Source: Enterobacter sp. RIT418 (GTDB taxonomy: Bacteria > Pseudomonadota > Gammaproteobacteria > Enterobacterales > Enterobacteriaceae). From it: a DNA stretch of 64,000 nucleotides. Positions within the stretch are counted from its first letter, which is position 1; the number at the start of each line of letters is the position of its first letter. The translations under genes were made by a program, and so were the position numbers. Below are positions 4,193 through 64,000 of the stretch, piece by piece. The stretch lies in assembly GCF_003057745.1 (NCBI RefSeq), contig NZ_QBJD02000013.1, positions 62,001 through 126,000 on the forward strand. Reading direction: 5' to 3'. The notes under the pieces were generated by a model. The model made no database searches. It was not told where the DNA came from and saw nothing but the letters and a program-made list of their open reading frames with translations.

Positions 4193-5842
4193 ATGTTTAA
4201 ACGTATAAAAGTGATAACCCTTCTGATCTCGGTGCTGCTCGTCCTCGGCGTCATGCAGCTGATCTCCGCCGGCATTTTTATTAATGCGCTCAATAACGAT
4301 AAGCACAATTTCACGGTGTCCCAGCTTTCCAGCCAGAACGTTGCTGAATTTACCGACGCGTGGATCAGCCTGAACCAGGCGCGCGTGACCCTGAACCGCG
4401 GCATGCTGCGCCTGCAAAGCAGCATGGCGAACCAAATTAACGGCGGACAGCTGAACGAGCTGGTCACCACCGCGAAAAACCTGCTGGCCGACGCGCAGGC
4501 GCATTACGACAAATACTACGCGCTGCCGGAAACGCCGGGCATGGACGAGAGCCTCGCGGATCGCCTGGAGGCGGAATACCGCAACTACTCCTCGACGCTG
4601 GCACAAATGAACACCCTGCTGGCGCAGGGCAACCTGGAAGATATGTTCAAGCAGAATGCCGAACAAAAGCAGGTGGCGATGCAGCGCGTCTACGGGGAAT
4701 GGCGCGAGGCGCAGGCAAAGCTCACAAACGCCGGCATTAAGGATAATGAGAGCGACTACAAGCGCATTATGTGGACGCTTTCCGCGGTCATGATCCTGGT
4801 CATTGCCGTCATTATTACCAGCTGGATCGCGATGCGTCGGGTGCTGCTGCTGCCGCTGCAGGACGTCATCAGCCATATCCGCGCGATTGCCGCAGGCGAT
4901 TTAACCCAGCCGATTCAGGCGGAGGGAAAAAATGAGATGGCCATCCTTGCGCGCAACGTGCAGGAGATGCAAACGTCGCTGGCGAACACGGTCGGCGCGG
5001 TGCGTGAAGGCGCAGATACCATTTACACCGGGGCCGGCGAGATTTCGGCGGGCAGCAACGATCTCTCCTCCCGCACCGAGCAGCAGGCGGCGTCTCTGGA
5101 AGAGACGGCTGCCAGCATGGAACAGCTGACCGCGACGGTGAAGCAAAACGCCGACAACGCCCGTCAGGCCTCTCGTCTGGCGCTTGACGCGTCATCCACG
5201 GCGAAGAAGGGCGGCAGCGTGGTCGAAGGCGTGGTGCGCACGATGGATGAGATCGCCACCAGCTCCAGCAAAATTGCCCAGATCACCAACGTGATCGACG
5301 GCATTGCCTTCCAGACCAACATTCTGGCGCTGAACGCGGCGGTGGAAGCGGCGCGGGCGGGCGAGCAGGGGCGCGGCTTTGCGGTCGTGGCGGGCGAAGT
5401 GCGTACCCTCGCCCAGCGCAGCGCGCAGGCGGCGAAAGAGATCAAGGCGCTGATCGATGATTCCGGCGAACGCGTCAGCGCGGGATCCCAGCTGGTGAAT
5501 GAAGCCGGGTCAACCATGGCGGAGATTGTGAATGCAGTCACCCGCGTCACCGACATCATGGGCGAAATTGCGTCGGCCTCCGACGAGCAGAGCCGCGGTA
5601 TCGATCAGGTGGGTCAGGCGGTTGCCGAGATGGATCGCGTGACGCAGCAAAACGCCTCGCTGGTGGAAGAATCTGCCGCGGCGGCAGCCGCGCTGGAAGA
5701 TCAGGCGGCGCGCCTGAACGAGGCCGTCGCGGTGTTTAAAATTACCCGCAGCCAGGCGGTAAAAGCCGCACCGGTGAAAACCTATGCCCCAAAAGCGCAG
5801 CCGGTAGCAGCGGCGCCTGAAGCGAACTGGGAAACGTTTTAA
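4193..5842 (+). CDS. Methyl-accepting chemotaxis protein, Tsr/Tar type with NWETF tail
   Basis: The product is 549 residues and is an inner-membrane chemoreceptor. TM1 is at about residues 7-31, a periplasmic four-helix ligand domain follows, TM2 is at about 191-213, then HAMP and the cytoplasmic methylation/signalling domain. The hairpin tip ([20 protein letters not shown]) lies near residues 367-386. The periplasmic helix has R64, N68, R69 and R73, the positions used by Tsr and Tar to bind amino acid carboxylate and amino groups, so an amino-acid-like attractant is likely. The last five residues, NWETF, are the CheR/CheB docking pentapeptide of high-abundance receptors. A FliA promoter precedes it. 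No receptor occupies this place in E. coli, so it is an accessory insertion between ytfE and ytfF. The exact ligand is unknown. Confidence 0.92.
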
Positions 5843-5847
5843 CAACA

Positions 5848-5917
5848 TGCCGGGTGGCGCTGACGCTTACCCGGCCTACGGTTTTATAGGCCCTGCAAGC
5901 GAAGCGCCGCCGGGCAA
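5848..5917. repeat. BIME: two inverted REP sequences
   Basis: TGCCGGGTGGCGCTGACGCT continuing to ACCCGGCCTACG (5848-5880), then an inverted partner ending GCGCCGCCGGGCA (5887-5917). This is the classic enterobacterial REP pair, with GCCGG..CCGGC arms, in a 3' region between convergent genes (chemoreceptor and ytfF). REP units stabilise upstream RNA and bind gyrase and IHF in E. coli. Confidence 0.82.
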
Positions 5918-5920
5918 TGC

Positions 5921-6886
5921 TCACACATCCGACGCCGGAACCACCGTTGGTTTTTCCGGCTTTGCCCTCACCGCTATCACCACGCCCACCACCAGCAGCG
6001 CGATCCCGCAGGCCGTCAGCAGCGGCGGCACGCTCTGGCGCATCAGGAACGTATACAGCAGCCCGGCCAGCGTTTCGAAGACGATCAGCGGCCCGAGGAT
6101 CACCGTCGGCAGCTTCTGGCTGGCAATGTTCCAGCACAGCGCGCCGACCCAGGAGCACAGCACGGCGATGACGATCATCAGCCCGACGAACACCCACGGG
6201 CGCGGCCCCAGCGGCAAAGCAAACTCTGGCTGCTGGCTCCCCAGCCACAGGCAGGCGCCCGCGTAGCCTACCAGCGAGACGGGAAGCGTCACCAGCGCCT
6301 GTGCCGTGGCCCACATCATCGGGTGTTTGTCCGGGTTCTCGCGCAGCCAGCGGGCGTTGCGCAGGGCATACCACGCCCAGCACACCACGGACACACAGGC
6401 CAGCAGAATGCCGGAGACGTAGCGCCACGGGCTAAAATCGGCCAGGCCGTGGCTCAGCTCGGCAATATTCACGCACGCCAGCCCGACGGCAATGCACGCC
6501 AGCGCTGGCACCATCTTTACCCACGCCAGCTTGCCGTCCCGCTGGCTATACAGCAGGTTGGCAAAGACGGGGATCACCACCGGCAGCGTGCCGATAATCA
6601 TGGTAGATACCGGCGCGCCCGTGCGCTGAATGGCGCTCGCCAGGCAGAAGTAGTAGATGAGGTTGCCCATCATGGTTAGCGCCAGCGCGGTGAGCCAGTC
6701 CTTGCGGCTCAGCTGGCGCAGCCTCGCGCGGCCAAGCCAGGCGAGAGGAAGGGCAATCAGCCCCAGCGCCAGATAGCGCCCCATGGACTGCAATACCGCC
6801 GGGTATTCCGGCACGATCAGAGGGCCGACAAATATCAGCCCCCACATCAGACCTGCAAGCAGGGCATACAACACGCCGCTAATCAT
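5921..6886 (-). CDS. ytfF: EamA/DMT-family inner-membrane transporter YtfF
   Basis: The product is 321 residues with about ten hydrophobic helices in two EamA repeats. It starts MISGVLYALLAGLMWGLIFV and has the characteristic RTGAPVSTMIIGTLPVVIPV segment, with length and sequence as in YtfF. The family exports small metabolites by a drug/metabolite transporter fold; I do not know the substrate with confidence. It lies 75 bp downstream of the AraC-type gene on the same strand, so the two may be co-transcribed. In E. coli ytfF directly follows ytfE; here the chemoreceptor intervenes. Confidence 0.93.
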   Translation of the reverse strand: MISGVLYALLAGLMWGLIFVGPLIVPEYPAVLQSMGRYLALGLIALPLAWLGRARLRQLSRKDWLTALALTMMGNLIYYFCLASAIQRTGAPVSTMIIGTLPVVIPVFANLLYSQRDGKLAWVKMVPALACIAVGLACVNIAELSHGLADFSPWRYVSGILLACVSVVCWAWYALRNARWLRENPDKHPMMWATAQALVTLPVSLVGYAGACLWLGSQQPEFALPLGPRPWVFVGLMIVIAVLCSWVGALCWNIASQKLPTVILGPLIVFETLAGLLYTFLMRQSVPPLLTACGIALLVVGVVIAVRAKPEKPTVVPASDV

Positions 6887-6961: not shown

Positions 6962-7801
6962 TTAGCGCTGAACGACCTGCTTCTGGTAGCGCACGGGCGT
7001 AATGCCGTAGCGGCGGGTAAACGCGCGGGTCAGATGCGACTGATCGGTCAGCCCGGCTGCGGCGGCGACGTCGGCGGCGGGCATGCCGCGGGTGAGGAAC
7101 GCCTTGGCGCGCCAAAGGCGGATGGCCATCAGCATCTGGTGCGGCGTCACGTGGAAATGGGCCTTAAACTGGCGCTGGAAGTGGTACGGGCTAAGCGACA
7201 CCACGCTCGCCAGCTCGTCCAGCGTCAGGGAATGCATATAGTTATCGTGCAGGTATTCCCGCACGCGCTCGAAGCGATGCACTCCTTCCCGAATAACGGG
7301 CGCGTGGCGGGCCAGCGGCTGAAACGTCTCGATCAGATCCAGCAGCAGCCCCTTCTGCGCAAGCGGATCGTCCGTATGCCACAGGCCGTAAATCAGCCGG
7401 CCAATCTGGACGGAGCGCAGGGGATCGTACCGCGTGACGTCGCTAAACCACCAGTGGCGGAGGCCGGTCACCTCCTCCAGCAGGTCGGGTTCGATGTAAA
7501 CCATCCGATAGCGCCAGCCGTCGTCGGTCGCAGACTCCCCGGTATGGATCTCATCCGGGTTCATGGTGACAACGGATTTTTCCGGCGCAAGGTGCTGCGT
7601 GCCGCGATAGCGAAAGCGCTCGGCGCCGGTTTCAATCGTGCCGATGCCGAACGCTTCGTGGGTGTGAGGCTCAAAGGCATAGCCGGAGATATGCGCGTGA
7701 TACAGTTCGATGCCCGGCACCTGCGCCAGGTGGCGAAAGCGCGCGCTGTCTCTCTCATCAATGAACTGGTCCGGTACGCCTTGCACGGTGAGCCTCCTCA
7801 T
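6962..7801 (-). CDS. AraC-family transcriptional regulator with cupin-like sensor domain
   Basis: The product is 279 residues. The N-terminal cupin/AraC-binding region (about residues 15-110) has the YHAHISGYAFEPHTHEAFGI segment, in which the histidines resemble a cupin metal or ligand pocket. The C-terminal double helix-turn-helix (about 180-279) has LTLDELASVVSLSPYHFQRQ and a second helix pair ending in the AraC signature HLTRAFTRRYGITPVRYQ. It is a cytoplasmic DNA-binding protein. E. coli has no such gene between ytfF and qorB, so this is accessory here. The same-strand neighbour ytfF, 75 bp downstream, is the obvious candidate target. The ligand is unknown. Confidence 0.9.
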   Translation of the reverse strand: MRRLTVQGVPDQFIDERDSARFRHLAQVPGIELYHAHISGYAFEPHTHEAFGIGTIETGAERFRYRGTQHLAPEKSVVTMNPDEIHTGESATDDGWRYRMVYIEPDLLEEVTGLRHWWFSDVTRYDPLRSVQIGRLIYGLWHTDDPLAQKGLLLDLIETFQPLARHAPVIREGVHRFERVREYLHDNYMHSLTLDELASVVSLSPYHFQRQFKAHFHVTPHQMLMAIRLWRAKAFLTRGMPAADVAAAAGLTDQSHLTRAFTRRYGITPVRYQKQVVQR

Positions 7802-7867
7802 AGGTCATCTCTCCATTATCAGAGATGACCCGAGGGGATGCCACAAAAAATAACCAGTTTGTAACAT

Positions 7868-8716
7868 TTACAGGATGGCTTTAATGCTCTCCGAAAGCGG
7901 CGTGGTTGGGCGGCCGATCAGCGCGCTCAGGGTGCGGCTGTCGTCGAACAGGCCGCCTTTGGATGCGCCGGTGTCGGAATCCGCCAGCATCTCCGCCAGC
8001 CCGGCAGGCAGCCCAACGCCCTTCAGCGCGGCGGCAAAATCGGCCTCGCTCAGGTTCTGGTACGCCACCGGCTTGCCGCTCTGTTTGCTCAGCTCGGCCG
8101 CCAGCTCGCTCAGCGTCCACGCGTTATCGCCCGCCAGCTCATAGACCTTGCCCGCGTGGCCATCCTCGGAAATCACCTTCGCGGCCGCTGCGGCGTAGTC
8201 CGCACGGGTCGCGGAGGCAATCTTGCCTTCGCCTGCGGCACCGATAAAAACGCCGTGTTCCAGGGCCGGTGGCGCGCTCGCCAGGTAGTTTTCGGTATAC
8301 CAGCCGTTGCGCAGCAGGGCATAAGGAATGCCCGATTCCGCCAGCGCCTTCTCGGTTTCGACGTGCTCAACGTGCAGACCCAGCGGGGATGTATCCGCGT
8401 GCAGCAGGCTGGTGTAGGCAATAAACGTCACGCCAGCCGCTTTGGCGGCGTTAATCACGTTCTGATGCTGCGCGGCGCGCTGGCCCACTTCGCTGGAGGA
8501 GACCAGCAGCAGCTTATCCACGCCGCCCAGCGCGGCGGTGAATGCGGCCTGGTCGGCGTAGTCCGCCTGACGAACGATAATTCCCCGCTGGCTCAGCGCG
8601 TCGGCTTTCGCCGGGTTACGCACGATGGCCACAATCTGGCCTGCCGGAACGGTTTTCAACAGCTCTTCAATAACGTGCTGGCCCAGCTGGCCGGTAGCGC
8701 CGGTAATCGCGATCAT
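7868..8716 (-). CDS. qorB: NAD(P)H:quinone oxidoreductase QorB (YtfG)
   Basis: The product is 282 residues from the ATG at 8716, which has the strong Shine-Dalgarno AAGGAGA; the open frame extends further upstream, but that part has no family counterpart. The N-terminal Rossmann motif ITGATGQLG (about residues 4-12) is that of NmrA-like atypical short-chain dehydrogenases that bind NADPH. The family member in E. coli reduces quinones by two electrons. It is divergent from ytfH, an HxlR-type regulator, as in E. coli. That pairing recalls the redox-sensing QorR/qor pair of actinobacteria, suggesting quinone or electrophile induction. Confidence 0.95.
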   Translation of the reverse strand: MIAITGATGQLGQHVIEELLKTVPAGQIVAIVRNPAKADALSQRGIIVRQADYADQAAFTAALGGVDKLLLVSSSEVGQRAAQHQNVINAAKAAGVTFIAYTSLLHADTSPLGLHVEHVETEKALAESGIPYALLRNGWYTENYLASAPPALEHGVFIGAAGEGKIASATRADYAAAAAKVISEDGHAGKVYELAGDNAWTLSELAAELSKQSGKPVAYQNLSEADFAAALKGVGLPAGLAEMLADSDTGASKGGLFDDSRTLSALIGRPTTPLSESIKAIL

Positions 8717-8769
8717 GGTAAATCTCCTTCGTGTTTGTCTGGTGTTGTGGCACACTATCACCATAGCTA

Positions 8770-8782
8770 ACTTAAAGTAAGT
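8770..8782. promoter_or_regulatory. Candidate YtfH operator between qorB and ytfH
   Basis: Inverted repeat ACTTA-AAG-TAAGT lies in the 84-bp divergent spacer, 18 bp before the ytfH start. HxlR-family proteins bind short A/T-rich dyads of this size overlapping divergent promoters. The assignment to YtfH is inference from position. Confidence 0.5.
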
Positions 8783-8800
8783 ACGCACAAAAAGGTAAGT

Positions 8801-9187
8801 ATGAAAACAACGAATCCCACGCTCAGCGAACAAATGCGCGACGGCAACCTGTTTGCCGAGCAGTGCCCCTCGCGCGAGGTGCTCAAGCACGTCACCAGCC
8901 GCTGGGGCGTGCTTATCCTGGTGGCGCTGCGCGAAGGTACGCACCGCTTCAGCGATTTGCGCCGCAGGATGGGTGGCGTCAGCGAGAAGATGCTGTCCCA
9001 GTCTTTACAGGCGCTGGAGCAGGACGGGTTTGTCGATCGCGTGTCGTATCCGGTCGTGCCGCCGCACGTGGAATATAGCCTGACGCCGATGGGCGTTGAG
9101 GTCAGCGAGAAAGTCGCCGCGCTGGCGGACTGGATTGAGGTGAATACGCCAAAGGTGATGGAGAATCGGGACGATCGCGCGGCGTGA
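8801..9187 (+). CDS. ytfH: HxlR-family redox-type transcriptional regulator YtfH
   Basis: The product is 128 residues, a single winged-helix HxlR domain (about residues 15-110). It has the family segment CPSREVLKHVTSRWGVLILV and the wing motif PVVPPHVEYSLTPMG. Cys22 at the start of the domain matches the place of the redox-active cysteine in related quinone sensors such as YodB and QorR. It is expected to be a dimeric cytoplasmic regulator, probably of the divergent qorB. Synteny with E. coli is exact. The stop codon is followed by a palindromic repeat that fills the gap to cpdB. Confidence 0.93.
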   Translation: MKTTNPTLSEQMRDGNLFAEQCPSREVLKHVTSRWGVLILVALREGTHRFSDLRRRMGGVSEKMLSQSLQALEQDGFVDRVSYPVVPPHVEYSLTPMGVEVSEKVAALADWIEVNTPKVMENRDDRAA

Positions 9188-60045: not shown

Positions 60046-60432
60046 ATGCGTAAACATCTGTTAGCGATCGTCGCAGCTTCAACGCTGGTTCTAGGCTCTA
60101 CTGCGTTTGCCGCCGATCTTGAAGACAACATGGACATCCTCAGTCAAAACCTGAAGGTGGTGCAGAAAACGGACAATGCGGCGGAAATGAAAGACGCATT
60201 GACCAAAATGCGTGAAGCGGCGCTGGACGCGCAAAAAGCGACGCCGCCGAAGCTGGAAAGCAAAGCGCCGGACAGCCCTGAAATGAAGGACTTCCGCCAC
60301 GGTTTTGACGTGCTGGTGGGCCAGATCGACGGCGCGCTGAAGCTGGCCAACGAAGGCAAAGTGAAGGAAGCCCAGGCGGCAGCCGACCAGTTTGTCGCCA
60401 CGCGCAATACCTACCACAAAAAGTATCGTTAA
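60046..60432 (+). CDS. cybC: Soluble cytochrome b562
   Basis: The product is 128 residues: a 22-residue signal peptide ([20 protein letters not shown]..) and a 106-residue mature four-helix bundle. Heme ligands are present at mature Met7 (ADLEDNM) and His102 (NTYHKKYR). It is a periplasmic b-type heme protein of unclear physiological role. Unlike many E. coli strains, the signal sequence is intact. A good AAGGAAG ribosome site precedes it. A terminator lies 27 bases downstream. Confidence 0.96.
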
Positions 60433-60459
60433 CAGATCGCGCATCTGATACACATCCAG

Positions 60460-60485
60460 CGGGAGCCAGCGGCTCCCGTTTTTTT
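60460..60485 (+). terminator. Terminator of cybC
   Basis: CGGGAGCC-AGC-GGCTCCCG stem followed by seven T. It is a textbook intrinsic terminator. Confidence 0.95.
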
Positions 60486-60578
60486 GCCTGGTGATAAGTA
60501 AACCCTATCGCCATCACATTTTTGCATTACCACGCCTGAACGTTTTCATTCGCATCCTGCGCGTTTCACCGCGTGAAT

Positions 60579-60596
60579 GCGTGATATTCATCACGC
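60579..60596 (+). promoter_or_regulatory. CRP-like operator
   Basis: GCGTGA-TATTCA-TCACGC, with the core GTGA-N6-TCAC of the CRP consensus in perfect symmetry. It lies about 190 bp before the operon start. It suggests catabolite control of the downstream genes. Confidence 0.6.
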
Positions 60597-60659
60597 AAAT
60601 ACAGCGTTTTATCCACATTCAACGTTTTTATGTGGCACAGATCACTACCGCGGCTCGCC

Positions 60660-60679
60660 TTTCCACTTCGAAGTGGAAA
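60660..60679. promoter_or_regulatory. Perfect 20-bp palindromic operator candidate
   Basis: TTTCCACTTC/GAAGTGGAAA without a spacer. The size and symmetry fit a dimeric repressor (for example GntR, LacI or RpiR type). No such regulator gene lies in the window; it may lie further downstream of the operon or elsewhere. The palindrome is 87 bp upstream of the first start codon. Confidence 0.6.
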
Positions 60680-60765
60680 ACAACTCGCTACAAACATTGC
60701 GCGCCCAACGTTAGTTTTATTCCAGAGCCATTAACGGGGTAAGACCAGTGATTAACGGAGCGGTA

Positions 60766-61086
60766 ATGAACGACGTTGGGGAACAGGCGGTGCAAACAGA
60801 ACAGCTCGCGACCACCATGCTGCAGCAGGTCTATGCCCTGCTGGCCGGGCATAACATCATCCCCAATGCGGTACAGGAACAAATGCTCACCTCTCACGTT
60901 CGCGCAATGGCGCACCGGTCCGTGACCGGCGAGCCGCTGCCGGAGGTTGAAGCGGATCTGTTCGACGAAATTTCACCTGATTCAATGCAACTCGCCCGTG
61001 AAGTGGTGGCGCAGTTTGGCAACCTTCCTGATGAAGAAGCCTGGCTGCTCTCCGTTCACTTTGAAGTCGCGAAAGACAACCTTTAA
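60766..61086 (+). CDS. Small PRD-domain protein
   Basis: The product is 106 residues from the ATG at 60766, which has GGAG six bases upstream; a GTG at 60748 would add six residues. It is a single PTS-regulation-domain-like helical module ending in LPDEEAWLLSVHFEVAKDNL, which matches the conserved HF-containing PRD helix. Unlike BglG or LevR there is no RNA- or DNA-binding domain, so it may act as a phosphorylation-responsive partner. The closest analogue I recall is YhfY of the E. coli yhf operon. It is the first gene of a tightly packed operon. Confidence 0.8.
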   Translation: MNDVGEQAVQTEQLATTMLQQVYALLAGHNIIPNAVQEQMLTSHVRAMAHRSVTGEPLPEVEADLFDEISPDSMQLAREVVAQFGNLPDEEAWLLSVHFEVAKDNL

Positions 61087-61096
61087 GGAGCAACAC

Positions 61097-61459
61097 ATGG
61101 AACAAATTACAGTCGTGATTGGCGATCGCCTGGGTAAAGGTCAGAAAGTGGCTGCCGGTGTCGAAAAAGCAGGTGGACGCGCGGTTGTCGTGCCGGGCGT
61201 GGCCGCGGATATGAAGCTTGGCGACGTGATGAAAGCGGAAAACGCCACCTTCGGCATCTCCTTCTGCGGCAGCGGCGGCGCGGGCGCAATCACGGCGCAA
61301 ACCAAGTATGGCTACAAGGCCAAATACGGCATGCGCTCCGTGGACGAGGGCGTCACCGCCATCAACGAAGGCTGCAACGTGCTGGGCTTCGGCTTTATGG
61401 ATAAAGAAGAGCTGGGCGAGCGTCTGGTGCAGGCGTGGCAGAAGAAGCACGGCGCGTAA
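61097..61459 (+). CDS. Glycine-rich SFCGS-family protein
   Basis: The product is 120 residues from the ATG at 61097 with an AAGGAG site. It is a soluble alpha/beta protein with the family signature ISFCGSGGAGAITAQTKYGY at about residues 53-72 and a second glycine-rich strand VLGFGFMDKEELGERL near the C-terminus. The single conserved cysteine inside a glycine loop recalls the phosphorylated cysteine loop of PTS IIB proteins and the GACNTGAG loop of YhfU, but no function is established. It lies ten bases after the PRD gene. Confidence 0.85.
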   Translation: MEQITVVIGDRLGKGQKVAAGVEKAGGRAVVVPGVAADMKLGDVMKAENATFGISFCGSGGAGAITAQTKYGYKAKYGMRSVDEGVTAINEGCNVLGFGFMDKEELGERLVQAWQKKHGA

Positions 61460-61461
61460 GC

Positions 61462-61761
61462 ATGAAAGAACAATTCACAACCACGGTGAGAGTGAAGGGG
61501 AAGGGCGACGCCAAAGCGCGCGCCTTTGCCGACGCGCTCAACCACGTTCAGGCCGCGGTGATGAAAGCCTCACCGCATATCTTACTGCGTATTGAGCCAC
61601 AGGATGTGCAGGTCGTTCAGGCGCAAGAAGCGGTGCGCAAAGAAGCCTTTCTGTTCTTCTTTTTGCGCCGGGAAAGACGCACCTACAGCGTGGAGCTGGA
61701 TGTGACCGTCAACGTGACCGCCATCAATCTCGACCGGGTGGATTTCGTCACGCAACGCTGA
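61462..61761 (+). CDS. DUF4312-family protein
   Basis: The product is 99 residues from the ATG at 61462, two bases after the SFCGS stop codon. It starts MKEQFTTTVRVKGKGDAKAR and has a ferredoxin-like alpha/beta pattern (strand, helix AFADALNHVQAAVMKA, strands ILLRIEPQDVQVVQ and YSVELDVTVNVTAINLDRVD). It has no signal peptide and is probably cytoplasmic. Function unknown; it always travels with DUF4311/DUF4310 in the clusters I know. Confidence 0.82.
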   Translation: MKEQFTTTVRVKGKGDAKARAFADALNHVQAAVMKASPHILLRIEPQDVQVVQAQEAVRKEAFLFFFLRRERRTYSVELDVTVNVTAINLDRVDFVTQR

Positions 61762-61784
61762 TTCTTACTACATAGGGCAGACTA

Positions 61785-62561
61785 ATGTTCCTGATAATAT
61801 TAATAAAATCGCTCATCATCGGCGGCCTGGTTGGCGTCGGCGTTGGGGCCGGGGCTGCACGCATGTTTCATGCGCCTACCACACAGGGTATGGGCGCGTT
61901 TCGTACGTTGGGGGAACTGAACTCCTGCGAAGGGGACCCGGCCTCTCACTTCTCCTTTGGGCTGGGCTTCTTCTTTAACGCCTGGGCGTCATCCGTGGCC
62001 GCGGGGGCGTTCACGCAGGACGTTGACCACCGCATCATCCCGAACTGGGGCGCCGCGGCGCTGATGATCAAGAACCGTAACGTCGGCGAAACGCTGCACG
62101 ACCCGCGCAAAATGGCGATTGCCTGCGGCATCATCGGCATGCTGGTTGTCACCTTCCTGAACCTTACCGCCTCCTCCGTGCCGGCCGCGCTTCAGGTCAC
62201 CGCCGTGAAGGTGCTGGTGCCCGCAGCAAACCTGCTGGTGAACACCGTGATGCCGGTGATCTTCTGGCTGGCGGCCATCGACGCGGGTAAAAAATCCGGC
62301 TTCTGGGCCACCGTGTTTGGCGGCGCGGCGCAGCTGATCATGGGTAACGCCGTACCGGGCCTGGTGCTGGGGATCCTGATTGGTAAAGGCGTGGAAGAGA
62401 GCGGCTGGAACCACGTGACCAAAGTGATGATGGCGGCGATTGTTCTGCTGTTCGTCCTGAGCGGCTTCTTCCGCGGCTTCGACATGAAGATGATCGAATC
62501 CTTCCATCTGACCGTGCCGAACTGGCTCGACATGATCCACAACTCGCTCAGCGGTAAATAA
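61785..62561 (+). CDS. DUF4311-family integral membrane protein
   Basis: The product is 258 residues with about seven hydrophobic helices. The N-terminal helix is glycine-rich (LIIGGLVGVGVGAGAARMFH). Conserved polar loops include ELNSCEGDPASHFSFGLGFF and AGAFTQDVDHRIIPNWGAAA, which suggest a substrate site facing the membrane interior. With DUF4310 it probably forms one inner-membrane transporter. The substrate is unknown. It lies 23 bases after the DUF4312 gene. Confidence 0.85.
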   Translation: MFLIILIKSLIIGGLVGVGVGAGAARMFHAPTTQGMGAFRTLGELNSCEGDPASHFSFGLGFFFNAWASSVAAGAFTQDVDHRIIPNWGAAALMIKNRNVGETLHDPRKMAIACGIIGMLVVTFLNLTASSVPAALQVTAVKVLVPAANLLVNTVMPVIFWLAAIDAGKKSGFWATVFGGAAQLIMGNAVPGLVLGILIGKGVEESGWNHVTKVMMAAIVLLFVLSGFFRGFDMKMIESFHLTVPNWLDMIHNSLSGK

Positions 62562-62574
62562 CAGGAGCCTCTAA

Positions 62575-63216
62575 ATGGAACAGAATAAAGGTTTTTGGTA
62601 TGCCGACTGGTCGTTCCCGATCTTCGTTGGCCTGCTCTCCTCCGGCGTGTTCGCCGGGACGCACATGTACTACCTGTACGGCATCGGCGCGTTTAACGAA
62701 GTGGCCTTCGTGGCGATGCTGAAAGCGGGGATGGATACCGGCGTGTACGGCGCGGTGGCGGCGTTCGGCGCGAGCTTCCTGTTCGCCCGCATCATCGAAG
62801 GCTCGCTGGTCGGTATTCTGGATATCGGCGGCGCGATCCAGACCGGCGTGGGCTTAGGCGTTCCGGCGCTGCTGCTGGGCGCGGGCATTATGTTCCCGGT
62901 GACCAACTTCATTGCCGCGCTGATTACCGGCCTGGTGATTGGCCTGGCGATTGGCTACGTCATCATCCTGGCGCGTAAGTTCACCATCAACCAGAGCAAC
63001 TCCACCTACGGCGCGGACGTGATGATGGGCGCGGGCAACGCCTCCGGCCGCTTCCTCGGGCCGCTGATTATCCTCAGCGCCATGACCGCCTCCATTCCGA
63101 TCGGCGTGGGGTCACTGCTGGGCGCGCTGCTGTTCTACATCTGGCAGAAGCCGATTACCGGCGGCGCGATCCTCGGCGCCATGCTGTTAGGCTGGCTGTT
63201 CCCGGTCGCCCTTTAA
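62575..63216 (+). CDS. DUF4310-family integral membrane protein
   Basis: The product is 213 residues with about six hydrophobic helices. It starts MEQNKGFWYADWSFPIFVGL. Glycine-rich helices and the loop NQSNSTYGADVMMGAGNASG are typical of the family. It has no ATPase or known energy domain. With DUF4311 it is predicted to form a two-subunit membrane channel or carrier. It lies 13 bases after the DUF4311 gene, which has an AGGAG site before the DUF4310 start. Confidence 0.85.
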   Translation: MEQNKGFWYADWSFPIFVGLLSSGVFAGTHMYYLYGIGAFNEVAFVAMLKAGMDTGVYGAVAAFGASFLFARIIEGSLVGILDIGGAIQTGVGLGVPALLLGAGIMFPVTNFIAALITGLVIGLAIGYVIILARKFTINQSNSTYGADVMMGAGNASGRFLGPLIILSAMTASIPIGVGSLLGALLFYIWQKPITGGAILGAMLLGWLFPVAL

Positions 63217-63258
63217 CACCTGCGGGCGCTGCGGCGCCCGCCTTACCAGGAGAACCCC

Positions 63259-64000
63259 ATGTTTGATTTACTCCTGCGCCGCGCGCGCCTCTCCGACGAT
63301 ACCCTGACCGATATCGCCATTCAGGACGGGAAAATCGCGGCGCTGGGCGAGATTAACGCACCCGCCCGTAAAACGGTTGAGCTAAACGGCGACGTGTTCG
63401 TCAGCGCAGGCTGGATCGACTCCCACGTTCACTGCTACCCGAACTCCCCGATTTACCACGACGAGCCGGACAGCGTCGGCATCGCTACCGGCGTCACCAC
63501 CGTAGTGGACGCGGGCAGCACGGGGGCTGACGACGTCGACGATTTCTACGCGATGACCCGCAAAGCCGCGACGGAGGTGTACGCGCTGCTGAACATCTCC
63601 CGCGTGGGGCTGATTGCCCAGAACGAGCTGGCCAACATGGTGAACGTCGATGCGGGCGCGGTGAAGCAGGCGGTGAAGCGCCACCCTGATTTTATCGTCG
63701 GCCTGAAGGCGCGCATGAGCAGCAGCGTGGTCGGCGAGAACGGCATTGCGCCGCTGGAACACGCGAAAGCCATTCAGAAAGAAAACGGCGATCTGCCGCT
63801 GATGGTGCACATCGGCAACAACCCGCCGAACCTCGACGAAATCGCCGAGCTGCTGAGCTCCGGCGACATCATCACCCACTGCTATAACGGCAAGCCGAAC
63901 CGCATCCTGACGCCGTCCGGCGAGCTGCGGGCGTCCATCACCTCCGCCCTGAAGCGCGGCGTGCGTCTGGACGTCGGCCACGGCACCGCGAGCTTCAGCT
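63259..64000 (+). CDS. Amidohydrolase/deacetylase-family metallohydrolase, partial (C-terminus beyond window)
   Basis: The frame starts at the ATG at 63259 (CCAGGAG ribosome site) and is open to the window end, about 247 residues. The amidohydrolase-superfamily metal motif is present: GWIDSHVHCYPN (HxH at about residues 59-61), a bridging-lysine candidate in IVGLKARMSSS, histidines in LMVHIGNNPP and IITHCYNGK, and DVGHGTASF at the end. Members of this subgroup act as deacetylases or esterases on small N- or O-acylated compounds, but the natural substrate is unknown. Related clusters are followed by a DgaE-like PLP lyase and an aldolase; those would lie beyond the window. It is cytoplasmic, probably acting on the substrate imported by DUF4311/4310. 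Confidence 0.9.
   Translation, partial: MFDLLLRRARLSDDTLTDIAIQDGKIAALGEINAPARKTVELNGDVFVSAGWIDSHVHCYPNSPIYHDEPDSVGIATGVTTVVDAGSTGADDVDDFYAMTRKAATEVYALLNISRVGLIAQNELANMVNVDAGAVKQAVKRHPDFIVGLKARMSSSVVGENGIAPLEHAKAIQKENGDLPLMVHIGNNPPNLDEIAELLSSGDIITHCYNGKPNRILTPSGELRASITSALKRGVRLDVGHGTASFS

What the first reader, a model, noticed from the sequence alone, without database searches (positions are those of the whole stretch)
60766..64000. Uncharacterised membrane system: PRD, SFCGS, DUF4312, DUF4311, DUF4310 and amidohydrolase operon
Six genes with gaps of 2-42 bases encode a small PRD protein, two small soluble proteins, two polytopic membrane proteins and an amidohydrolase. The set looks like a multi-component importer coupled to a deacetylase or esterase, but none of the transport components has a known function. 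The PRD module and a cysteine in a glycine loop hint at phosphotransfer, as in PTS, without recognisable PTS enzymes.
Basis: partly seen in the sequence, partly recalled or inferred. Interest (0 to 1): 0.75.

Follow-up and report, generated by a model that had tools for sequence, protein, structure and literature searches.

The report
Orphan amino-sugar-acid uptake operon
The six genes are real and belong to a widespread, so far untested gene set that probably imports and breaks down an acylated amino sugar acid, using a membrane transporter of unknown type that may also attach the phosphate the pathway needs.

Summary
Confirmed: PRD, SFCGS, DUF4312, DUF4311, DUF4310 and an amidohydrolase in tandem (gaps 2-42). 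Beyond 64000 follow the predicted DgaE-like lyase and KDGP aldolase, then a lactonase with a signal-peptide-like start and a PRD/EIIA regulator. The set is catalogued (EF_0829 to EF_0839 families), but my searches found no functional study.

Best explanation: PTS-linked uptake and catabolism of an N-acyl-2-amino-2-deoxyaldonate (N-acetyl-D-glucosaminate type). [quoted passage not shown] In a Bacillota sample the enzyme trio carries PfkB where the cassette is absent (4 of 4) and not where it is present (0 of 5). Three loci keep regulator, PRD, SFCGS, DUF4312, DUF4311 and DUF4310 without the enzymes: a separable module.

SFCGS resembles RpiB isomerases and E. coli YhfU, not EIIB; its invariant Cys aligns with RpiB's motif Cys. 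PRD also looks regulatory: one natural fusion to the regulator. A conserved operator (TTTCCACTT-NN-AAGTGGAAA) precedes the operon in most proteobacterial loci. The membrane proteins match no PTS family by sequence; fold searches were uninformative. Transport, substrate and phosphorylation remain inferred.

The parts
60631..60646 (+). CRP-like site TGTGG-N6-TCACT just upstream of the operator
   Evidence: TGTGG...GATCAC present in 5 of 6 aligned upstream regions; by count in the window such sites are at chance level (18 found, 18.4 expected), so suggestive only
60660..60679 (.). predicted operator of the operon: perfect 20-bp palindrome TTTCCACTTCGAAGTGGAAA
   Evidence: only match with up to 3 mismatches in the window, 0 in 100 shuffles; found with up to 4 mismatches upstream of the PRD gene in 14 of the 17 proteobacterial loci
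60766..61086 (+). PRD-domain protein (EF_0829 family), predicted PTS-phosphorylated regulatory subunit
   Evidence: TIGR03582 137.2 bits; H44 in 86 of 86 letters and H98 in 87 of 87
61097..61459 (+). SFCGS protein (EF_0830 family), RpiB-like small protein with invariant C57-GSGG loop
   Evidence: PF14272 201.4 bits, second-best Pfam family LacAB_rpiB; Cys in 88 of 88
61462..61761 (+). DUF4312 protein (EF_0831 family), small soluble subunit of the cassette
   Evidence: PF14189 117.6 bits; TIGR03578
61785..62561 (+). DUF4311 polytopic membrane protein (EF_0832 family), predicted permease subunit
   Evidence: PF14188 404.1 bits; helical model, mean pLDDT 74.2; 13 of 14 checked charged/polar residues identical in 91 of 91, the other (H105) in 90
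62575..63216 (+). DUF4310 polytopic membrane protein (EF_0833 family), predicted second permease subunit
   Evidence: PF14187 355.7 bits; helical model, mean pLDDT 73.8
63259..64000 (+). amidohydrolase/deacetylase (EF_0837 family), 5' part; the gene ends at the equivalent of 64392. After it, outside the window: DgaE-like lyase, KDGP aldolase, lactonase with signal-peptide-like start, PRD/EIIA regulator (L003 6377-11386)
   Evidence: TIGR03583 572.7 bits for the whole gene; six putative metal-site residues invariant in 83 of 83; downstream genes

Best explanation
An inducible catabolic operon for an N-acylated 2-amino-2-deoxy-aldonic acid, most likely N-acetyl-D-glucosaminate or a close relative. 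A lactonase with a signal-peptide-like start (in some enterobacteria) could open the aldonolactone outside the inner membrane (inferred). DUF4311 and DUF4310 form the membrane permease, with SFCGS and DUF4312 as soluble subunits (inferred from near-constant co-occurrence and a separable cassette). The cassette delivers the substrate as 6-phosphate (inferred from the lyase's conserved phosphate-binding arginines and the usual lack of a linked PfkB kinase). The amidohydrolase removes the acyl group (inferred), the DgaE-like enzyme eliminates ammonia to give 2-keto-3-deoxy-6-phosphogluconate, and the aldolase cleaves that to pyruvate and glyceraldehyde 3-phosphate (family-level inference, strong). 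The regulator with PRD and EIIA domains, probably assisted by the stand-alone PRD protein, reads PTS phosphorylation and acts at the conserved palindrome upstream (inferred).
For: Gene families and order. In 71 loci with long flanks around DUF4311: DUF4310 71 (one of them broken, L037), DUF4312 71, SFCGS 70, PRD 70 by the more sensitive search; amidohydrolase, lyase and aldolase 67 each and the regulator at least 61 by tblastn. Three loci (L046, L047, L049) hold regulator, PRD, SFCGS, DUF4312, DUF4311, DUF4310 without the catabolic genes (in L047 the PRD is fused to the regulator). Lyase residues placed around the 6-phosphate in the docked DGL model (Arg301, 332, 346; PMC9529869, passages) are Arg in 81 of 81, 80 of 80 and 80 of 80 letters (2, 3 and 3 gaps of 83), the two His in 82 and 83 of 83. 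PfkB kinase: 4 of 4 enzyme-trio loci without the cassette, 0 of 5 with it, in a sample of Bacillota genomes; 48 of 50 cassette loci with amidohydrolase and lyase but no EIIC have none. EI with HPr, or EI, beside the operon: two Bartonella plasmids, L216 and L050 Enterococcus ratti. Operator.
Against: No direct evidence of transport, substrate or phosphorylation. Only PfkB was searched as a linked kinase, and a kinase elsewhere in the genome is not excluded. 14 of 17 loci that carry EIIC as well as the cassette do carry PfkB. L209, which has a conventional EIIBC, also has PfkB, so a PTS permease does not by itself exclude the kinase. EI/HPr neighbours could serve the regulator only. One uncut locus (L063) has DUF4311 and DUF4310 but no detectable PRD or SFCGS. 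R226 (carboxylate contact in DGL) is Lys in 64 of 83, and the operon's lyase is below the D-glucosaminate-6-P lyase equivalog cut-off (381.6 against 600), so the exact sugar acid may differ. Fold searches gave no transporter match.
Confidence: 0.5

Rival explanations
1. The cassette is a secondary (ion-coupled) permease that imports the free sugar acid. A kinase encoded elsewhere phosphorylates it, or the substrate arrives already phosphorylated. SFCGS and PRD are regulatory subunits that gate the permease in response to PTS state and sugar-phosphate level.
For: SFCGS is RpiB-like, a fold that binds sugar phosphates (recalled); PRD modules are regulatory in known proteins (recalled) and one PRD is fused to the regulator; no PTS permease domain was found by sequence.
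Against: No PfkB gene is linked in 48 of 50 EIIC-free cassette loci with amidohydrolase and lyase, while the 4 cassette-free trio loci have one.
Confidence: 0.35
2. DUF4311/4310/SFCGS/DUF4312 is not a transporter but a membrane enzyme or sensor complex; the substrate enters by another route.
For: No fold match to transporters; SFCGS has an isomerase-like motif.
Against: EIIC is in only 17 of 71 loci (other transporter families were not searched systematically); a separable six-gene cassette exists; the lyase is found with ManXYZ-like genes (L214) and the enzyme trio with EIIC (L207) in other genomes.
Confidence: 0.1
3. The substrate is an acyl ester or acyl derivative of another 2-amino acid-like sugar acid rather than N-acetylglucosaminate.
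For: Lyase is a subfamily match, not the D-glucosaminate-6-P equivalog; Arg226 replaced by Lys in 64 of 83.
Against: Phosphate arginines, both His and the Schiff-base Lys are kept; aldolase passes the DgaF equivalog (393.5 against 300).
Confidence: 0.35

Closest known systems
Hypothetical equivalog set EF_0829 to EF_0839 (TIGR03582, 03577, 03578, 03580, 03579, 03583, 03581)
   Same: Every gene of the window set plus the aldolase belongs to it; E. faecalis has PRD to DUF4310 in the same order, then amidohydrolase and lyase
   Different: In E. faecalis the regulator lies before PRD and an EIIC-MupG block is inserted. The family entries name no function; this work adds pathway logic, a separable cassette, relatives of SFCGS and an operator
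Salmonella dga system: D-glucosaminate uptake by a mannose-family PTS permease with DgaE and DgaF (Miller et al. 2013, title seen in the reference list of PMC7396535; paper not held)
   Same: Last two enzymatic steps are of the same families
   Different: No mannose-type EII here; a different membrane pair and an added amidohydrolase
E. coli yhf operon (yhfY, yhfU, yhfT)
   Same: Stand-alone PRD plus an SFCGS-related small protein with an invariant Cys/Gly loop beside a polytopic membrane protein; same order PRD, small protein, membrane protein in Cetobacterium
   Different: YhfT shows no detectable sequence relation to DUF4311 or DUF4310; different catabolic genes
RpiB/LacAB sugar-phosphate isomerases
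   Same: SFCGS aligns over about 75 residues with the motif cysteine in register; two RpiB proteins have SFCGS as their second Pfam family
   Different: No His at the aligned position (RpiB ring-opening His, recalled); no similarity to the LacB-like profile I built (0.1%)
PEP:sugar phosphotransferase permeases
   Same: PRD, EIIA-bearing regulator, EI/HPr neighbours in some loci
   Different: No EIIA, EIIB, EIIC or EIID recognised by sequence in the five cassette proteins of the window

Membership tests
EF_0829 to EF_0837 gene set | each protein above the curated NCBIfam cut-off | tested here: met
   (amidohydrolase judged on the whole gene)
PEP:sugar PTS permease | recognisable EIIA and EIIB domains among the cassette proteins | tested here: not met
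   Pfam scan at E up to 1 lists none; profile comparison of SFCGS, DUF4312 and PRD with UlaB, GatB, ChbB, UlaC, GatA, ManX gave at most 5.0% (SFCGS with UlaC; single-sequence templates)
PEP:sugar PTS permease | membrane subunit of an EIIC/EIID fold | tested here: inconclusive
PEP:sugar PTS permease | PEP-dependent phosphorylation of the substrate on uptake | not testable with these tools
   needs biochemistry; indirect support only
RpiB/LacAB isomerase | family-level sequence match | tested here: not met
   PF02502 16.4 bits against cut-off 24.7, though second-best family; hhalign 40%
RpiB/LacAB isomerase | motif cysteine (catalytic in RpiB, recalled) | tested here: met
   aligned with C57, 88 of 88
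RpiB/LacAB isomerase | ring-opening histidine (recalled) | tested here: not met
   the RQHN of RpiB aligns with a position without His
[quoted passage not shown]
   606.3 against 385.3 bits
[quoted passage not shown]
   381.6 against 600 bits
[quoted passage not shown]
2-dehydro-3-deoxy-phosphogluconate aldolase DgaF | equivalog NF047796 | tested here: met
   393.5 against 300 bits
yhf-type system | PRD and DUF2620-type small protein | tested here: met
   profile comparison PRD 96.6%, DUF2620 against SFCGS 70.2%
yhf-type system | YhfT-type membrane protein | tested here: inconclusive
   0.1 and 0.8% in profile comparison with DUF4311 and DUF4310; folds not compared

The most novel reading that the evidence does not exclude
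DUF4311/DUF4310/SFCGS/DUF4312 is a new architecture of phosphorylating (group-translocating) permease: driven by EI and HPr, passing phosphate through the PRD histidines and/or the invariant cysteine of an RpiB-derived subunit, and unrelated to the known EII families. The E. coli yhf operon would be a second branch of the same class.
Probability: 0.3. Interest if true: 0.88.

Novelty: new variant of a known kind. Interest (0 to 1): 0.6.

Why it matters
Two membrane protein families shared from enterobacteria to enterococci at about 65-75% identity have no assigned function. The analysis gives a testable substrate class, shows which genes form the separable cassette, and links the small subunit to the E. 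coli YhfU family, so two orphan operons can be tackled together. If the phosphorylating reading is right, it would be a new way to couple uptake and phosphorylation.

Tried and rejected
Weak E. coli control hit of the DUF4311 model: in two related genomes weak hits cover positions 143-181. In G291 that hit lies at the start of an open frame that I recognise as a DjlA-like J-domain protein (identity recalled, no family scan), so a chance match of a membrane helix, not YhfT. G347 and the E. coli hit itself were not looked at.

YhfT as a fused DUF4311-DUF4310: profile comparison with 17 YhfT sequences gave 0.1 and 0.8%; not supported. A similar N-terminal spacing (FH at 28-29, then FGL) caught my eye but is unverified.

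SFCGS without DUF4310 (G518): a deletion remnant; PRD, SFCGS with a lengthened glycine loop, DUF4312 and the end of the regulator remain. L037 (Aeromonas) is a second remnant: DUF4310 stops matching after residue 39 and the aldolase match begins at residue 98, with amidohydrolase and lyase gone. DUF4310 is also short in L073 (116 aa). All read as they stand.

EI count: G780 has three EI genes over cut-off, so the one beside the operon is not its only EI. Whether the pair beside the operon in L050 is that genome's only one was not checked. CRP-like sites are at chance frequency in the window. No Rfam match in 60400-64000. The promoter scan found none there.

The RpiB comparison rose from 40% to 79% after adding two RpiB genes that the SFCGS model itself had found; the second figure is biased and the first is the one to use. 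In one search the rows named YhfX and YhfS are stale repeats of the ManX row, because no such profile file existed.

Paper searches without a functional study of the cassette. Searches were on the pathway and on PDB 8WZY. One search was irrelevant.
Full report
Observation. Pfam and NCBIfam confirm every name. Taking the genome beyond the window (L003; window position = L003 position + 57999), the amidohydrolase ends at the equivalent of 64392 and is followed by a DgaE-family lyase, a KDGP aldolase, a seven-bladed lactonase with a signal-peptide-like start, and a regulator with HTH, PRD and PTS_EIIA_2 domains; the next larger genes, on the opposite strand, look like nrdG and nrdD, as annotated at the same place in Klebsiella.

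How widespread. In 90 loci (those 80 plus 10 others) DUF4311 and DUF4310 were found in 90, DUF4312 in 89, SFCGS in 87, PRD in 86; DUF4310 is short in L037 and L073. Three of the four loci without a PRD hit are cut close to DUF4311 on that side; L063 is not, and it lacks PRD and SFCGS in an uncut flank without Ns. In draws of 149 genomes from the window's family, DUF4310 is in 69 and SFCGS in 70; the one extra genome carries a deletion remnant. Of 398 genomes spread over the phylum, DUF4311 passes the cut-off in 12, all in the window's own family.

A separable cassette. In 71 of 91 loci with at least 4.5 kb on the left and 7 kb on the right of DUF4311, the search finds DUF4310 and DUF4312 in 71, SFCGS and PRD in 70. 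By tblastn, which is less sensitive for the small proteins (PRD 64, DUF4312 66), amidohydrolase, lyase and aldolase are in 67 each and the regulator in 61. Four of the 71 lack amidohydrolase and lyase. L037 is a deletion remnant. The other three (L046 E. faecalis 13-SD-W-01, L047 and L049 Vagococcus) consist of regulator, PRD, SFCGS, DUF4312, DUF4311, DUF4310 and end there. So the two small proteins travel with the membrane pair and the regulator, not with the enzymes. In L047 the PRD is the C-terminal part of the regulator itself (residues 629-736 of 736, E 1e-43), which points to a regulatory role for PRD, in one genome. Gene order varies among Bacillota.

Pathway. The lyase is a DgaE-family enzyme (606.3 bits, cut-off 385.3) but below the D-glucosaminate-6-P equivalog (381.6, cut-off 600); the aldolase passes the DgaF equivalog. 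[quoted passage not shown] The alignment places all of them on identical residues of the window genome's lyase, and over 83 lyases the arginines are Arg in 81 of 81, 80 of 80 and 80 of 80 letters, and the two His in 82 and 83 of 83. The residue aligned with Arg226, near the carboxylate, is Arg in 14 and Lys in 64 of 83, so the pocket is not identical. (The paper names Lys217; the conserved Lys sits at 213 in the chain of the alignment.) The amidohydrolase keeps six putative metal-site residues in 83 of 83. Its closest PDB entries are filed as dihydroorotase (8wzy) and adenine deaminase (2ics). A study of the related cog3964 reports an incorrectly annotated dihydroorotase (title only; paper not held). 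From recall, that work found activity on (R)-alpha-acyl carboxylates, which would fit N-acetyl-D-glucosaminate.

Where does the phosphate come from? In 299 genomes of the phylum of G620 (Evansella, Bacillota), 10 lyases passed the cut-off; I fetched these and the 2 next below. Nine of the 12 have amidohydrolase, lyase and aldolase together. The five with the cassette (L211, L212, L213, L215, L216) have no PfkB hit; the four without it (L207-L210) all have PfkB next to the aldolase. L214 has the lyase with ManXYZ-like genes and no PfkB. L217 and L218 (below cut-off) have neither cassette nor PfkB. Among the 71 loci above, 50 carry amidohydrolase and lyase without EIIC, and 48 of these have no PfkB (the two others: L077, which keeps MupG, and L097, where PfkB is 9.6 kb away); of the 17 that also have EIIC, 14 do. 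So PfkB goes with other blocks, not with the cassette. L209 has a conventional EIIBC and yet PfkB, which weakens the rule. Other kinase families were not searched. In L. plantarum an EIIC, a DUF871 protein and a DgaE-family lyase bear neighbouring locus numbers (LP_RS01000, 01010, 01020 in a table of PMC9019972, passages).

PTS links. PRD keeps both His (86 of 86 letters, 87 of 87). Two Bartonella plasmids carry a fused HPr-EI gene directly after the regulator. In G780 an EI gene follows the aldolase and a HAD hydrolase on the same strand, though that genome has three EI genes over cut-off. In Enterococcus ratti (L050) HPr- and EI-like matches at 4747-6686 lie just before the regulator gene (7002-8894) on the same strand; L025 has an HPr-like match on the opposite strand. 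Among the 71 loci only L050 has such a match. All 11 genomes checked, with or without cassette, have an EI. These links could serve the regulator only.

What SFCGS is. LacAB_rpiB is its second-best Pfam family (E 0.0088), RpiB the best PDB match although not significant (E 0.33), and RpiB the best of 16 profiles compared (40%, next 6.4%), with the cysteines aligned; the LacB-like profile gave 0.1%. In the search of 149 genomes the only two matches outside the operon, both weak and below cut-off (E 4.1e-4 and 9.4e-4), are RpiB genes: their proteins score 190.5 and 199.8 bits for LacAB_rpiB, with SFCGS as the second family (E 1.4e-4 and 2.7e-4). Cetobacterium DUF2620 in turn finds SFCGS as its second Pfam family (E 0.09), and a 17-sequence DUF2620 profile matches SFCGS over 100 columns at 70%. 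DUF2620 has its own invariant Cys (17 of 17). Nothing similar was seen with EIIB.

The yhf parallel. In Cetobacterium the order is YhfZ, PRD, DUF2620, YhfT; a PRD hit accompanies DUF2620 and YhfT in 15 of 17 yhf loci (most of these loci are only about 4 kb long). The membrane protein is not detectably related to DUF4311/4310.

Regulation. A 20-bp perfect palindrome 86 bases before the PRD start is the only such site in the window. It occurs upstream of the operon with up to 4 mismatches in 14 of the 17 proteobacterial loci (not in L091, L100, L105) and in none of the 63 Bacillota loci of that call.

Models. DUF4310 (46 sequences, pLDDT 73.8) and DUF4311 (44 sequences, 74.2) are helical, with poorly modelled conserved loops, and no solved fold stood out.

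Verdict. The operon is real, conserved and catalogued, but I found no functional study of the cassette in the held library. The catabolic half is well supported at family level. That the cassette transports is likely; that it delivers a phosphorylated product is about even; that it is itself a PTS-driven group translocator is possible and not excluded.

Noticed in passing
L047 7030-9240: Natural fusion of the BglG-type regulator with the PRD protein in Vagococcus allomyrinae.
   Followed up: partly
L035 8047-10062; L159 15405-17420: HPr-EI fusion gene directly after the operon on two Bartonella plasmids (the domain scan was made on L035 only).
   Followed up: partly
L216 5583-7298: An EI gene beside the cassette operon in a Bacillota genome that has three EI genes.
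   Followed up: partly
L050 4747-6686: HPr- and EI-like matches just before the regulator of the cassette in Enterococcus ratti.
   Followed up: no
L176 10586-11883: Deletion remnant of the operon: the membrane pair and the enzymes are gone, and the SFCGS glycine loop is lengthened.
   Followed up: yes
L037 9729-10268: Second deletion remnant, in Aeromonas caviae: the DUF4310 match breaks off and runs into the aldolase match.
   Followed up: partly
L063 8366-10010: Lactococcus raffinolactis locus with DUF4311 and DUF4310 but no detectable PRD or SFCGS.
   Followed up: partly
L003 8284-9456: Lactonase with a signal-peptide-like start inside the operon; found in 4 of 91 loci (L003, L025, L029, L036).
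   Followed up: no
L034 13548-16283: EIIC of lactose/cellobiose type, a 99-aa protein without Pfam match and MupG inserted between cassette and enzymes; EIIC in 17 of 71 loci.
   Followed up: partly
L214 12888-16547: DgaE-family lyase beside ManXYZ-like genes in a Bacillota genome.
   Followed up: no
L033 4936-12345: E. coli yhf operon: YhfU is related to SFCGS and YhfY to the PRD protein.
   Followed up: yes
window 60580-60595: Second inverted repeat CGTGATATTCATCACG upstream of the operon, partly conserved.
   Followed up: no
L003 11452-11980: Small gene pair between the operon and the nrdG-like gene; genes at the same place in Klebsiella are annotated as RelB/RelE toxin-antitoxin.
   Followed up: no
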